In this document: positions 8,656 through 29,081 of the stretch, piece after piece
How positions within the stretch are numbered: the stretch's first letter is position 1
How the letters are laid out: each line of letters begins with the position of its first letter
From: Macrocybe gigantea
Taxonomy: Eukaryota > Basidiomycota > Agaricomycetes > Agaricales > Callistosporiaceae
DNA length: 64,000 bases
Assembly: GCA_011319805.1 (NCBI GenBank)
Contig: SJRY01000234.1
Location: 248,001-312,000, forward strand
Direction of reading: 5' to 3'
Program-made: the position numbers and the translations under genes
The notes under the pieces: model-generated
What the model saw: the letters and a program-made list of their open reading frames with translations, nothing else
Databases searched by the model: none
What the model was told of the DNA's origin: nothing

Positions 8656-9289
8656 TTAATAAGGCTCAATACGACCGTTTGGGGACTTCGTTGGGACCTC
8701 CGCGGGAATCTGGCGCTTCTGGTATGGCTCGATCCTGCCCTGGGGTGATTTGGTTGGGACCTCTGCAGGAATCTGACGCTTTTCGTATGGTTCAATCCTG
8801 CCCTGGGGAGATTTGGTCGGGACTTCCGCAGGAATCTGGCGCTTCTCATATGGCTCGATTTTTCCCTGAGGAGATTTGGTCGGAACTTCTGCGGGGATCT
8901 GGCGCTTGGAGTAAGGTTCGATCCGGCCATTGGGTGATTTGGTAGGGACTTCAGCGGGAATCTGACGTTTAGCATAAGGTTCAATCTTGCCATTGGGTGA
9001 TTTCGTTGCGACCTCCGCCGGAATCTGACGCTTTGCATAAGGCTCTATCCTCCCAGTCGGAGACTTGGTTGGAATTTCCGCAGGAATTTGCCTCTTCACA
9101 TAAATAGGTATAGTGTTCAAGGGAGCAACGGGGCGATTTGTGATGGCGCGCTGAATGCCAAGTCAAAAATGCGGGCAGTGATGCAACTTTTATACTACTC
9201 ACCCTGAGTGGCAGAGGCAAAGGCGTGGCAAAAACCTGGCCAGCGACGAGCAGAACAAATGCAGCGAGACCAAAAGCGCGCGCAAACAT
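8656..9289 (-). CDS. Secreted Kex2-processed repeat precursor (KEP-type), seven 21-residue units
   Basis: Precursor of 193 residues in two exons (9203-9289 and 8656-9150). Residues 1-21 form a signal peptide (MFARAFGLAAFVLLVAGQVFA). After a short pro-region ending in YVKR come seven tandem units, each beginning QIPAEVPTKSP and ending IEPYxKR with x = A, S, E or Q; the last unit stops right after the Tyr. The Lys-Arg at every border is the classic Kex2 site, so secretion would release seven peptides of about 18-19 residues, each with an N-terminal Gln that can cyclise to pyroglutamate. Variation between units is limited to V/I, P/A, N/Q/T, R/K and the residue after Tyr. This architecture is known from fungal KEPs, Ustilago Rep1 repellents, pheromone precursors and dikaritin RiPPs. 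No UstYa/DUF3328 oxidase is adjacent. Function unknown. Confidence 0.85.
8659..9090 (-). repeat. Seven tandem coding repeats, 63-nt unit (last one 54 nt)
   Basis: Six full 63-nt copies and one 54-nt copy run without interruption and encode the peptide units of the Kex2-type precursor. The reading frame is kept in all copies and changes are mostly synonymous or conservative, so the array is under selection at the protein level and is probably kept uniform by unequal exchange or gene conversion. Confidence 0.9.
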
Positions 9290-9669
9290 GGTAGGATAGC
9301 TGAGGTAACGGAAAGCCTGCGAAACTGTGCAAAAGGAACGAAGGATGCGAAGGCGATCTAGCGCCCCTCGAAAACGAAAACAGGAAAAGCTGGGATATCA
9401 ACATGAGTATTGTCTAGCATTGCAGCGGAACGGGACGAGGGACCTACATCGGAAAGAAGGAAGGAAAGGCTAGGCACCCATTTGGACTTGGCCTAGTTTA
9501 TATAGAGGGCGACTGCTGACATTTCTGGCTGCGTTGCTTCGTGATCGTTGCCAGCAGCGACCGACAGACATGAAGAACTCGCTGAGGGTTTCCTGATCAG
9601 GAAATTTATCCTGACAGATCGTTACTGGTGCTCATGTGCACGTGATCGCCTGATATTTACCTCTTCACC
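9290..9669. promoter_or_regulatory. Divergent intergenic region with TATA box for the repeat precursor
   Basis: The 380-bp spacer lies between the repeat precursor (minus) and ESF1 (plus). On the minus strand CTATATAAAC (9496-9505) is a strong TATA box about 207 bp upstream of the precursor ATG. A strong TATA box is unusual among the housekeeping genes here and suits a highly or conditionally expressed secreted product. A possible 5'-UTR intron (GTAGGT donor near 9446, acceptor near 9330) is inferred. Nothing else is recognised. Confidence 0.55.
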
Positions 9670-11960
9670 ATGTCCATAGATCCACGCTTCCAAAGGCTCA
9701 GGTCCGACCCGCGCTTTCGACGGCCAAAGAAAAAGCACGCTAAACTCGAAGTGGATGAGCGCTTTAAAGACATTTTTGCGTCTTCAAAGCAGAAAAAAGG
9801 AAAATCTGGTACGATCCATCACATACATGCCGAGCTGCCCATGCAGTGACTGAGCAACGGTATCAGTCCGAGTCGATAAATATGGACGCAGTGTTTCTGT
9901 CACCCACGATCAGGACAACCTGAAAAGATATTACAATTTCGACGTGGAAGATGAGATATCCCTTCCAGACTATGCCAGAGGACAGGTTCTCCTCGAATCG
10001 TCTGACGAGGAAGAAGACGACGCGAACCGTTCCTTAGACGAAGAAAGCGACACAGAAAGCACCATTGTCATAGGGGCTGATCACGATACCTTTAAAGATG
10101 ACGTCGAAGTAGACTTGGATGAATCAAACTTTGCCGACCTGGATGCCCAAGCAGCTGCATATTCGAAACGGCATCCCGAACAGCCGGACGATCCCCTGAC
10201 ACAGACCAACAGACTCGCTGCCGTCAATCTTGATTGGGACCATGTTCGCGCCACTCACCTTTACAAAATTTGCTCCTCGCTTTTGTCCCCGACCGCCCCT
10301 CTGTCTACACACGTAACCCGAGGGCAGCATGAACCCAGCCGTCCATCTGAACAAGTGGCGAGAGGTAGAGTTCTGCACGTCCGCGTCTATCCCAGCGATT
10401 ACGGAAGAGAGAGAATGGCTCGTGAAGAACAAGAAGGTCCTCCTAAGGAAATCTTCAAAAAACGGAAGGAAATCGCTAGTCCGGAAGAGATTATTGCCAG
10501 CGATCTCTACGATCTCGGGGATGGAGCTGAATGCGATGAAGACGCTCTCCGCACTTACCAGATTGACCGTCTACGGTATGTTGCTCCCCCCCCTTCTGCT
10601 GCATTTCTCTCCAGCGTCACTGATATCACGTGAATAGGTATTATTATGCGATTATAACTTTTGACACGACAGAAGCAGCAGTTCATGTCCTTCGTGAACT
10701 TCAGGGGACTGAGTTTGAACGCTCAGCGAATATCTTTGACTTCAGTTTCGTCCCCGATGACATGACCTTCGACCAAGAATTCAGGTAGATCATTTTCAAT
10801 CTCTATTCTTTCTATCAACTGAATGGCACCCTTCTAGAGATGAAGCCACAGGAGAATCCATTGTGAATTATAAAAACATTGATTTCGTGACTGATGTAAG
10901 TGGCACCAGCGAGCCTGAACTTTGCGACCGATTTTATGTCTTGCAGGCCCTCCGACACTCAAAGGTGAAACTGACTTGGGACGAAGATGACTCAGAACGC
11001 AACCAATTGACAAGGCGTCGGCTTACACCAAAGGAAATAGAAGATGCGGACTTCCGGACGCTTTTAGCGTCTTCCTCAGAGTCCGAGGATAACGATGTAA
11101 GCCTAGCGAGGGGAGGGAATAAAATGTCGCGGGACAAGGTCCGTACTTTGCTACTCGGTGGTGACCATGAGTTACCAGAAGGGTGGGGAGATGACAACGA
11201 TGAGGGCGACGTTGATATGGAAGTCACTTTTACTCCGGGACTAAGCGAACAGCGGGATTCGGACGAGACCACCCTCGAGAAATATCAACGAAAGATGCGC
11301 GAGAAGAGGAAAAAGAGGAAAGAGGAGTCAAAGGCAAGAATGGACCGACCAGCGGCGCAGCCAGAGGATGATTTCTTCGAAGTCAGCAACAACGAAGCAC
11401 AGGCTGAAGATCTGGAGTCATTGAGCAAAGCCGACCAAAAGATGAAGAAGAAAAGGCACACATCAGAATCGCTACCGAAAGCCTCGAGGCAGGTGCTCTC
11501 GACTGCCGAAGGACTGGATCACCTCCTTTCATCCAACGATTCCACCTTCGAGCCGAAACATTTCGACATGAAAGCCATTCTGAAGGTAGAGAAGAACTCT
11601 GAACGAAAGCGGAAATCCAGAAAGAAGACAAATATTGTCGATCATGATCTCCAAGACGACTTCAAGATTGACGTGGAGGATGACCGGTTCAAGGCTATAC
11701 ACGAAAATCACGAATTTGCCATTGACCCTAGCAATCCGCAGTGCGTAGACCTTTGATAATTGAACTGGTCAACGACTTACTGGACCAATTGCAGCTTCAA
11801 GAAAACAAAGAGCATGAAGGCACTTTTAAATGAGAGAGCACGAAGACATCAGGAAAACGGCACGGCAGAGTCCGGTAAGGATTTGGCAAGCTTGGTTGAG
11901 AGCGTCAAAAGGAAAAGCGCTTTTGTTAAAAAAGAACCCAATAAGAGGCGGAGGGCATAA
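9670..11960 (+). CDS. ESF1: ESF1 nucleolar pre-rRNA processing factor
   Basis: Nucleolar protein for early 18S pre-rRNA processing. Six exons (9670-9808, 9867-10575, 10638-10784, 10838-10895, 10947-11740, 11795-11960) join in frame. The N-terminus DPRFQRLRSDPRFRRPKKK, the segment VRVDKYGRSVS, the middle RYYYAIITFDTTEAA and YVNIDFVTD-like NYKNIDFVTD, ALRHSKVKLTWDEDD, and the C-terminal NUC153 segment DDRFKAIHENHEFAIDPSNP followed by FKKTKSMKALLNERARR are all family hallmarks. Strongly acidic and basic low-complexity tracts lie between them. The protein is about 670 residues, near the usual length. Confidence 0.95.
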
Positions 11961-26962: not shown

Positions 26963-27168
26963 GGTACGGTGGCAGAAGTAATGTAACGAATGGAAAGGAG
27001 GTCGAGTCGGAAGAAATACAAGCGGCTTTGACACTGACACGAGGTATGATCGGTTACGTGCTATCGCGCGATTGTGACTGAAAACTGTATACATGTTCCA
27101 TTTCCGAGATTCTACAGGTCAGTGGTATAGTAGCTTGGTGCCCAGACACGTCCTTGCTCGAGAATAGG

Positions 27169-29081
27169 TCATAAGAACTCCTTTGGGCGCTTCGATGGGT
27201 CTCCCCCTGCCTCATCGAACACCATTCCAGCCACTCGGAACGCAAGTTCTGTCCTAGGCGTTTACATAAATACGCCGAAGGAGCATCGAGGAGCAACCTA
27301 CCATCAGCCTGGCTCCTGACCGATGCTTCAGCGTATACTCTGACAACATCCTCCGTGCCACTAGGTCGCACAAAGGAGCGGCCTCCTTCATATTTCCGCA
27401 CAATCTCTTCAATATTTGCCTGCAAGCCTGGCGGACTAACGAGTCGTCTTTCAGCGTCTTCCGTACGGAAGGCATTCCTGTCGCTCACTACGACTTTGAC
27501 AAGCCGGTTGGGGAGATCGGTGTACAACGAATCCCATTCTATGGCAGAATATGACTTGTGAGCCAGCACGACCTCCACCAGGAGTAGGTCGGAAAGAGCG
27601 TCTCCGACGGCTTGATTGATTAGATCGATCAAGTTGTTGAGGTGCCCGAGTGCTGTAGACTGGGCAGGCGTAGACGGTTGATGATGCGAGAGAGCATTGA
27701 TAGTAGCTTGGGAAAACAGAACTGTTCCATGTCCGTTCGCTTCAAAATAGACTCCGATATCATAATGTTCTGCGGCATGGTGAAGATGCTTCACTCCAGT
27801 CGGAACGCATTTCACCGGAAGACGCTGTGACAAAAGTAAGATAAGCCTCGCTCGCTGTCGAGTCGAACGAAAATCCCTGACCTTCGACAAATATTTCGTA
27901 GACGATCCGTTCGCGTACGCTGTCTGCACTACACCGACCTTTATCCTATTCTCAAGCCCAGCAGATTTGACGAGATCTACGATAAATGTAGAAACCAGTG
28001 TCGCAATCTTATCTCCGTCCAACATGTGGAACTGACTTCGCTCGTCAAGATAGTAGTACATGACGCGGTCGGCATCGCCGTCCAGGCTGCAGGCGCGTTG
28101 TCCAGGCTGCAGTCGACCTGAAAGGGAGGGTGGGAGCTTCTGGCTGGTCTTGACATAGTCCGCTCCGCAAGATGCGTTCAGTGCAGCGGCATCGTCGACA
28201 GATGTGTTTTCGAAATGAAAAGGGAAAATGTCACTCAAATACTGCGAGAATTTCAGGGCCGCAGATGCACCGACCCCATTCGCACAGTCGATGAGGAGGG
28301 GTTGAATTGGAGTCCTTCCAGCCTGTAACGATCAGCAAGGTAATGATGCAAGGGTACGGGGACGTACGACTAGCTTTTTGAACGCGGTGCTGAGCTTCTC
28401 GTAGTATCCTTCTTCAGTGTCTAGGCCGTAGCTTTGTGGTGTACCTTTCGTGTTGATGGCCCTAACGAGGTAATGCAGGACAGGTGTCGTTGTAATTCCG
28501 GCGTTGCGCATGTCCGAGCCGATCGCGGTCAAACCGTCTTCCAACGCCGCAATAAGAGGTATGCCTGATGGCCTAGTATCGCGTGCATAGACAACTCGCG
28601 AGGGTTTGGTCAGATCAATTTTGGTTGTCTTCACAAACGAATTGAGGGCATCAATGAAATCCTCAGTGGTTGTCATATTGGCGAGTGTAGTCGCATGAGA
28701 CTCCCAAGATGCCTCTAGCATCTCTCCACGTGAATCCACGATTTTGACACCATTGTCCTGGAACGCATAAGATGGAACATGGTATATCACAGTTGTGATT
28801 ACATACTTGAGCTGGGTTATGAGATGCGGTGACCATTACACCGACGGCTTTGCCATCCAGTTTCTTGCTCCTGAGGCCCGCGATTATACCCACGCGAAAC
28901 AATGTCGAATCTAACGTGCTCCCCCTAGCAGGTCGCCACCCATCAGCCATGAATCCCGTCTTGGGTTGGTCGGGACATACAAAGTCCTAAAGCCCGCGGT
29001 GCCATACTGAAAGTGTATATTTTCTGGCCTCGGATGCGCGTCAGATAGGGATCTAATTTTTTCGACCGGTAAATTGGACAT
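27169..29081 (-). CDS. PCM1: Phosphoacetylglucosamine mutase (AGM1/PCM1)
   Basis: Converts GlcNAc-6-phosphate to GlcNAc-1-phosphate on the way to UDP-GlcNAc, needed for chitin and glycans. The start at 29081 gives MSNLPVEKIRSLSDAHPRPENIHFQYGTAGFR. Motifs: active-site serine loop VMVTASHNP, metal-binding loop SLDGDADRVMYYY, sugar loop FEANGHGTVLFS, phosphate-binding loop FVRPSGTEDVVRVYAEA. The last exon (acceptor at 27253-27255 region) restores the conserved ending LAFRVAGMVFDEAGGDPSKRPKEFL, with stop at 27169-27171; reading through the last intron gives a different, unrelated tail. Confidence 0.95.

What the first reader, a model, noticed from the sequence alone, without database searches (positions are those of the whole stretch)
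8656..9289. Undescribed Kex2-type secreted peptide precursor with seven near-identical units
A signal peptide is followed by seven head-to-tail units of 21 residues, each starting QIPAEVPTKSP and ending EPYxKR. The Lys-Arg at every border, the N-terminal Gln (pyroglutamate-prone) and the invariant Tyr near the C-terminus predict release of seven almost equal peptides. Such precursors are known as KEPs, Rep1 repellents or dikaritin RiPP precursors, but I do not recognise this peptide sequence. A strong TATA box at 9496-9505 suggests regulated or strong expression. No DUF3328 oxidase is next door, so a linear peptide hormone, repellent or structural role is as likely as a cyclic RiPP.
Basis: partly seen in the sequence, partly recalled or inferred. 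Interest (0 to 1): 0.8.

Follow-up and report, generated by a model that had tools for sequence, protein, structure and literature searches.

The report
Known mushroom pyroglutamyl peptide precursor
This gene encodes a secreted mushroom protein built to be cut into seven nearly identical 18-residue peptides; the same peptide family is already described in another mushroom, so this is a new member of a known family whose job nobody has found.

Summary
A two-exon minus-strand gene (9289-9203, 9150-8656; 52-nt intron) encodes 193 aa: signal peptide, pro-region ending in KR, seven 18-residue cores spaced by xKR, and a stop directly after the last EPY. All 18 third codon positions vary between units, against 6 of 36 first and second positions (pooled pN/pS 0.087), so selection keeps the peptide. 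It is single-copy and no UstYa/DUF3328 match lies on its contig. It is not undescribed: the core is 15/18 identical to pyro-QIPAELPTKSINGNIEPY of Coprinopsis cinerea KEP 497993 (PMC9769878), detected by mass spectrometry in young caps and without knock-out phenotype. It is probably also Umemura's type #7, the most widespread KEP type (PMC7329392; inferred). Added here: 50 relatives, 48 with units matching my pattern; a predicted 18-mer ending at Tyr; kexins and a glutaminyl cyclase in the same genome; a recurrent pro-region motif; and apparent linkage to AMG1 in three other species and probably Termitomyces, suggesting vertical inheritance at a fixed place. Function remains unknown; I lean towards a conserved extracellular signal.

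The parts
9203..9289 (-). exon 1 (29 codons): ATG, signal peptide MFARAFGLAAFVLLVAGQVFA (by eye) and start of pro-region
   Evidence: residues 1-31 matched in the own genome
9151..9202 (-). 52-nt intron, phase 0, GTGAGT...CAG
   Evidence: of one donor and four acceptors tried, the only pair that joins the frame to the repeat
8656..9150 (-). exon 2: rest of pro-region (ending TIPIYVKR), seven units, stop directly after the last Tyr
9091..9150 (-). exon-2 part of the pro-region, RAITNRPVAPLNTIPIYVKR, the recurrent pro-region motif
   Evidence: a loose form of the motif in 20 of 51 family sequences
8659..9090 (-). seven-unit array QIPAE[VI][PA]TKSP[NQT]G[RK]IEPY + xKR (last unit without xKR)
   Evidence: coordinates counted from the spliced frame
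9497..9504 (-). TATA-like TATATAAA upstream of the precursor gene
   Evidence: read directly; not a test of function
9670..11753 (+). divergent neighbour, ESF1-like gene (RRM_ESF1, NUC153), at least to 11753; 380 bp between the two ATGs
   Evidence: N-terminus recognised from recalled ESF1 pattern; exons not worked out
27057..28331 (-). phosphoacetylglucosamine mutase (AMG1) open frame, linked marker about 18 kb away

Best explanation
The gene encodes a KEX2-processed repeat protein (KEP) of the family of Coprinopsis cinerea KEP 497993. The precursor enters the secretory pathway; kexin cuts after each KR; carboxypeptidase(s) remove KR and the single variable residue before it, stopping at Pro-Tyr; glutaminyl cyclase closes the N-terminal Gln. 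Product: seven copies of a linear 18-residue peptide, pyroGlu-IPAE(V/I)(P/A)TKSP(N/Q/T)G(R/K)IEPY, in five sequence variants. I judge it most likely to be a conserved extracellular signal or interaction peptide of mushroom-forming fungi rather than a cyclised toxin. Shown here: gene anatomy, selection on the peptide, homology, presence of kexin and cyclase genes. Inferred from the relative: cleavage, trimming, pyroglutamate. Conjecture: what the peptide does. The confidence given is for the precursor and its linear product, not for the role.
For: Anatomy. Selection: 18 of 18 third codon columns vary among units versus 4 of 18 first and 2 of 18 second; pooled pS 0.769, pN 0.067 over 21 unit pairs. 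Homology: 35 proteins at E<=0.1, 40 with a 27-row profile at E<=0.01, 50 distinct, 48 of them with units under my pattern. Studied relative: C. cinerea KEP 497993 gives pyro-QIPAELPTKSINGNIEPY and ...EPYK, primarily in young caps, lost in the knock-out; 15 of 18 core residues are the same. Tyr end: in 22 of the 49 sequences with units (window included) the last unit ends the protein at Tyr or Phe, which agrees with the peptide seen in C. cinerea. Enzymes in the same genome: kexin P-domain matches at two distinct places on C228 and a 97.7% identical copy of one on C68; a glutaminyl cyclase whose two frames match QC structures at E 7.4e-22 and 4.7e-15; a DPP-IV-type gene. No UstYa match on the contig.
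Against: No RNA or peptide data for this organism. The C. cinerea protein itself was not among my 50 hits; the tie to it rests on the core peptide printed in the paper. KEX1 was not searched. The relative's knock-out had no detectable phenotype and the synthetic peptides tested showed no antibacterial activity. In the relative another product of the same precursor, pyro-QVPVDEPA, was the one in mycelium and medium, and the EPY peptides were found primarily in young caps, so release need not be uniform. Some family members have few or no dibasic pairs (P0031 and P0033: 0; P0022, P0023, P0026: 1), so Kex2 cutting at dibasic pairs is not universal in the family.
Confidence: 0.88

Rival explanations
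1. Cyclic dikaritin-type RiPP: UstYa-type oxidases cross-link the Tyr of each core and the product is a secreted toxin-like metabolite.
For: Kex2-spaced repeats with an invariant Tyr resemble dikaritin precursors; the genome does hold UstYa-type matches, on contigs C206 and C203/C292.
Against: No UstYa match on contig C233; neighbouring frames with a Pfam hit look like housekeeping genes; the relative's detected peptides are linear; Umemura's type #7, which I infer to be this family, has DUF3328 near 0 of 64 members.
Confidence: 0.04
2. Structural or surface-active secreted repeat protein (Rep1-repellent-like): the cleaved peptides assemble on aerial hyphae or the cap surface.
For: Repeats with Kex2 borders and secretion are the anatomy of Rep1 (recalled); C. 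cinerea EPY peptides were found primarily in young caps.
Against: The cores look short, charged and proline-rich rather than amphipathic (my judgement, no computation); the C. cinerea knock-out had normal growth and fruiting. I saw no test of wettability or assembly in what I read.
Confidence: 0.12
3. Peptide for biotic interactions (bacteria, animals, other fungi or plants) not needed in axenic culture; this is the view of the C. cinerea authors.
For: No phenotype of the knock-out in axenic culture, and the authors' own conclusion.
Against: No antibacterial activity of the peptides tested against five strains; broad conservation of the core, single copy and an apparently fixed locus are, to my mind, unlike fast-changing interaction peptides.
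Confidence: 0.35
4. DNA-level repeat (minisatellite) in a chance open frame, not a peptide gene.
For: 63-nt tandem repeat.
Against: Silent sites differ widely while the protein is kept; homologs with E down to 1.1e-64.
Confidence: 0.01

Closest known systems
Coprinopsis cinerea KEP 497993 (Vogt et al. 2022, PMC9769878; abstract, passages, Results parts 1 and 2 of 3, and Discussion read)
   Same: Core QIPAELPTKSINGNIEPY against QIPAEVPTKSPNGRIEPY: 15 of 18 identical (counted by eye); secretion, Kex2 spacing, N-terminal Gln, Tyr end
   Different: The C. cinerea precursor was not in hand and not among my hits, so unit number and whole-length identity were not compared
Umemura 2020 KEP type #7 (G-1/P-2), PMC7329392 (section 6 read in full, other passages)
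   Same: About one copy per strain (64 in 62), no DUF3328, Tyr in the unit, genera shared with my hits (Termitomyces, Trametes, Neolentinus) and Coprinopsis, and the same weak Pfam names DUF2188 and DUF1648 that members of my family hit
   Different: Its unit profile is in a figure and a supplement that I could not read, so identity is inferred; Lentinula, Amanita and Russula, in my hits, are not in its genus list
Dikaritin precursors (ustiloxin, phomopsin)
   Same: Signal peptide, Kex2-spaced repeats, Tyr in the core
   Different: No UstYa match on the contig; core longer and, as recalled and as printed in PMC7329392 (YAIG, YVIG, YVIP), unlike
Ustilago maydis Rep1 repellent (recalled)
   Same: Kex2-spaced repeats, secretion
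   Different: No Rep1 sequence was compared
Ascomycete alpha-pheromone precursors and STE13-type basidiomycete KEPs
   Same: Kex2 layout
   Different: No repeated XA/XP dipeptides after KR in the window protein; cores look unrelated by eye

Membership tests
KEX2-processed repeat protein (KEP) | N-terminal signal peptide | tested here: inconclusive
   Typical n- and h-region and a VFA cleavage site by eye; no predictor at hand (sequence)
KEX2-processed repeat protein (KEP) | Repeats separated by dibasic Kex2 sites | tested here: met
   KR before each of seven units
KEX2-processed repeat protein (KEP) | Peptides released in vivo | not testable with these tools
   Shown only for the C. cinerea relative
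KEP 497993 family | Homologous core peptide | tested here: met
   Window core against the printed C. cinerea core, 15 of 18 identical by eye; whole precursors not compared
KEP 497993 family | Glutaminyl cyclase in the genome (for pyroglutamate) | tested here: met
   L024, two frames match QC structures
Umemura type #7 | Same repeat profile | not testable with these tools
   Profile in Fig. 5 and a supplement; inferred from genera, copy number and Pfam names
Dikaritin RiPP | UstYa/DUF3328 gene near the precursor | tested here: not met
   0 of 7 genome matches on contig C233
Rep1 repellent | Sequence relation to Rep1 | not tested
   No Rep1 sequence was compared

The most novel reading that the evidence does not exclude
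The peptide is a vertically inherited, endogenous peptide signal of Agaricomycetes (perhaps of Dikarya), kept at a fixed chromosomal place near AMG1 and ESF1, with an unknown dedicated receptor and a role in cap development or hyphal communication that the axenic knock-out tests missed. The recurrent pro-region peptide ...PLxTIPxYV would be a second product or a sorting signal.
Probability: 0.33. Interest if true: 0.72.

Novelty: new member of a known kind. Interest (0 to 1): 0.32.

Why it matters
I know of no linear peptide hormone of this kind in mushroom-forming fungi (recalled; not searched for). If Umemura's type #7 is this family, it is the most widely distributed KEP type of that survey, with homologs reported in edible mushrooms and no known function. 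This copy is unusually clean: seven near-identical cores whose silent sites have diverged, which shows selection on the core itself and gives exact masses to look for.

Tried and rejected
Pfam hits on the precursor (DUF2188 E 8e-5, SopE_GEF E 0.11) have 0 stretches that pass on their own; I take them for repeat artefacts. Paralogs: a protein search of the own genome at E<=10 found only this gene, in two pieces. Glutaminyl cyclase hunt: of the 14 M28 matches, five loci were run against PDB, of which three match aminopeptidases (L012, L013, L017) and two nothing (L016, L019); L014 was not run; L015 and L018 are near-identical to L016 and L019; two loci on C40 were fetched and only translated; the C71 locus is the cyclase. 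Species: every AMG1 row named in the best 120 of 6021 that I recognise is a mushroom-type basidiomycete, best identity 74%; a tree of the window with 50 agaricomycete rows does not place it (end branch 0.6, no supported set; the query is a stop-to-stop frame that may hold intron). tRNA and Rfam scans of the window: nothing. Bacterial-type promoter scan: nothing, and not meaningful here. Limits of the unit counts: the pattern fixes or narrows positions 2, 3, 5, 7, 8 and 18 and loosely 13, so conservation there is partly by construction; 2 of 51 sequences (P0027, P0050) gave no unit although P0027 shows Kex2 repeats by eye; a few of the 200 matches are plainly false or shifted (for example one each in P0008, P0034, P0042, P0044, and the 21- and 22-residue matches). 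Ten of the 35 hits were not listed again, where only 7996 candidates were scored.

Full report
OBSERVATION. The minus-strand gene at 9289-8656 is real. Of one donor and four acceptors tried, one pair (intron 9202-9151, 52 nt) joins the signal-peptide exon to the repeat in frame and gives 193 aa. Tandem Repeats Finder reports the 63-nt array. Seven cores of 18 residues follow: one QIPAEIPTKSPTGRIEPY, one QIPAEVATKSPNGKIEPY, two QIPAEVPTKSPNGRIEPY, one QIPAEVPTKSPQGKIEPY and two QIPAEVPTKSPQGRIEPY; spacers are AKR, AKR, SKR, EKR, EKR, QKR, and the seventh core ends at the stop.

MORE THAN CHANCE. Between units, 18 of 18 third codon columns vary, against 4 of 18 first and 2 of 18 second (Fisher p 1.4e-9, columns treated as independent). 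Pooled pS is 0.769 and pN 0.067 over 21 pairs that are not independent of each other. The units are therefore not a fresh DNA repeat; their protein sequence is kept by selection. The gene has one match in the 41.2-Mb assembly by DNA and by protein, although four other pairs of loci show that the assembly holds near-identical duplicate stretches (97.7-99.8%).

RELATIVES. phmmer gave 35 proteins at E<=0.1; a 27-row profile gave 40 at E<=0.01, 15 of them new, so 50 in all. Ten of the first 35 were not listed again in the second search. Named sources: Termitomyces, three Lentinula species, Desarmillaria tabescens, Hermanssonia, Russula earlei, Neolentinus lepideus, Sparassis, Hericium, Amanita muscaria, A. 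thiersii, Trametes cinnabarina, and one ascomycete, Naviculisporaceae sp. PSN 640 (P0046, three units ending in PF; Sordariales). The looked-up species belong to Agaricales, Polyporales, Gloeophyllales and Russulales. C. cinerea itself was not among the hits. A pattern found units in 49 of 51 sequences, window included: 200 units, 164 of the standard length, a few of the 200 being false or shifted. Among the 164, position 13 is Gly in 158 (loosely narrowed by the pattern) and position 9, which is free, is Lys in 120. Of 152 units that start within six residues behind a dibasic pair, the first residue behind the pair is Gln in 109. Between Tyr/Phe and the next dibasic pair there is one residue in 116 of 143 cases. 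In 22 sequences the last unit ends the protein; 24 of 51 sequences end in Tyr or Phe; several others are fragments or have tails.

KNOWN FAMILY. The core is 15 of 18 identical, counted by eye, to pyro-QIPAELPTKSINGNIEPY of C. cinerea KEP 497993 (PMC9769878; abstract, passages, Results parts 1 and 2 of 3 and Discussion read). That paper reports the peptide and its +K form primarily in young caps, pyro-QVPVDEPA from the same precursor in medium and mycelium, loss of all three in the knock-out, no phenotype, no antibacterial activity of the synthetic peptides tested, a putative glutaminyl cyclase, and at least 13 homologs. A search of the paper library for four 9-mers found that paper alone, by its own 9-mer; six further 9-mers found none. 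Umemura's survey (PMC7329392; section 6 read, other passages) lists type #7 in 49 genera and 2 phyla, 64 KEPs in 62 strains, 0 of 64 near DUF3328, with Pfam names that include DUF2188 and DUF1648; the window protein and P0001 hit DUF2188 and P0014 hits DUF1648, below or near the cut-offs. I infer that type #7 is this family. In Le Marquer et al. (PMC6339444; passages only) I saw no such motif.

MATURATION. By analogy with C. cinerea, KR and the variable residue are trimmed to ...EPY and Gln becomes pyroglutamate. The stop directly after EPY in the last unit supports Tyr as the true end. The genome has kexin P-domain matches at C228 (two, 3 kb apart) and C68, the latter 97.7% identical to one C228 copy and so perhaps its allele; a glutaminyl cyclase on C71; and a DPP-IV-type gene. 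KEX1 was not sought.

PRO-REGION. The stretch APLNTIPIYVKR before unit 1 recurs, under a loose pattern, in 20 of 51 sequences. The seven of these with a named source are all agaricomycetes, but six named agaricomycete sequences lack it under the pattern (three Lentinula, Desarmillaria, both Amanita). It may be a second peptide, a degenerate unit (its end resembles IEPYxKR) or a sorting signal; this is conjecture.

LOCUS. Thirty open frames of the window were scanned with Pfam in three calls, out of many more possible frames (70 of at least 130 residues); 14 had a hit, two of them below the curated cut-off. Those near the gene are an ESF1-like gene diverging 380 bp away, a CS-domain gene, a mitochondrial carrier, a helicase, PfkB and IndA-type frames, ICE2 and AMG1. 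No UstYa match lies on the contig. The fourth, Lentinula edodes, does not, but several assemblies are mixed there. In Termitomyces the KEP of one strain and a four-member AMG1 cluster named for another report the same longest contig. Equal contig length is a proxy. If right, the gene has sat near AMG1 since before Agaricales, Polyporales and Gloeophyllales separated.

VERDICT. A clean new member of a published peptide family. Function is the open question; the conservation found here leans towards an endogenous signal, against which stands the published knock-out without phenotype.

Noticed in passing
   Followed up: partly
window 9290-9447: ATGs lie between the TATA-like box and the start codon; a GTAGGT (9447) and a CAG (9317) could be a 5'UTR intron that removes them (read).
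   Followed up: no
L003/L004, L009/L010, L015/L016, L018/L019: Near-identical duplicate stretches on different contigs (97.7-99.8%), as if two nuclear haplotypes were partly unmerged in the assembly.
   Followed up: partly
P0022, P0023, P0026, P0031, P0033, P0043: Family members whose units are mostly bordered by single Arg (ARQ, TRD) rather than dibasic pairs; 0 to 3 dibasic pairs each.
   Followed up: no
P0046 (Naviculisporaceae sp. PSN 640): An ascomycete protein with three QIPAEV units ending PF, two followed by RR and one by EKR, so the core motif crosses phyla.
   Followed up: partly
L010/L011 (contig C228): Two kexin P-domain matches about 3 kb apart on the same strand.
   Followed up: no
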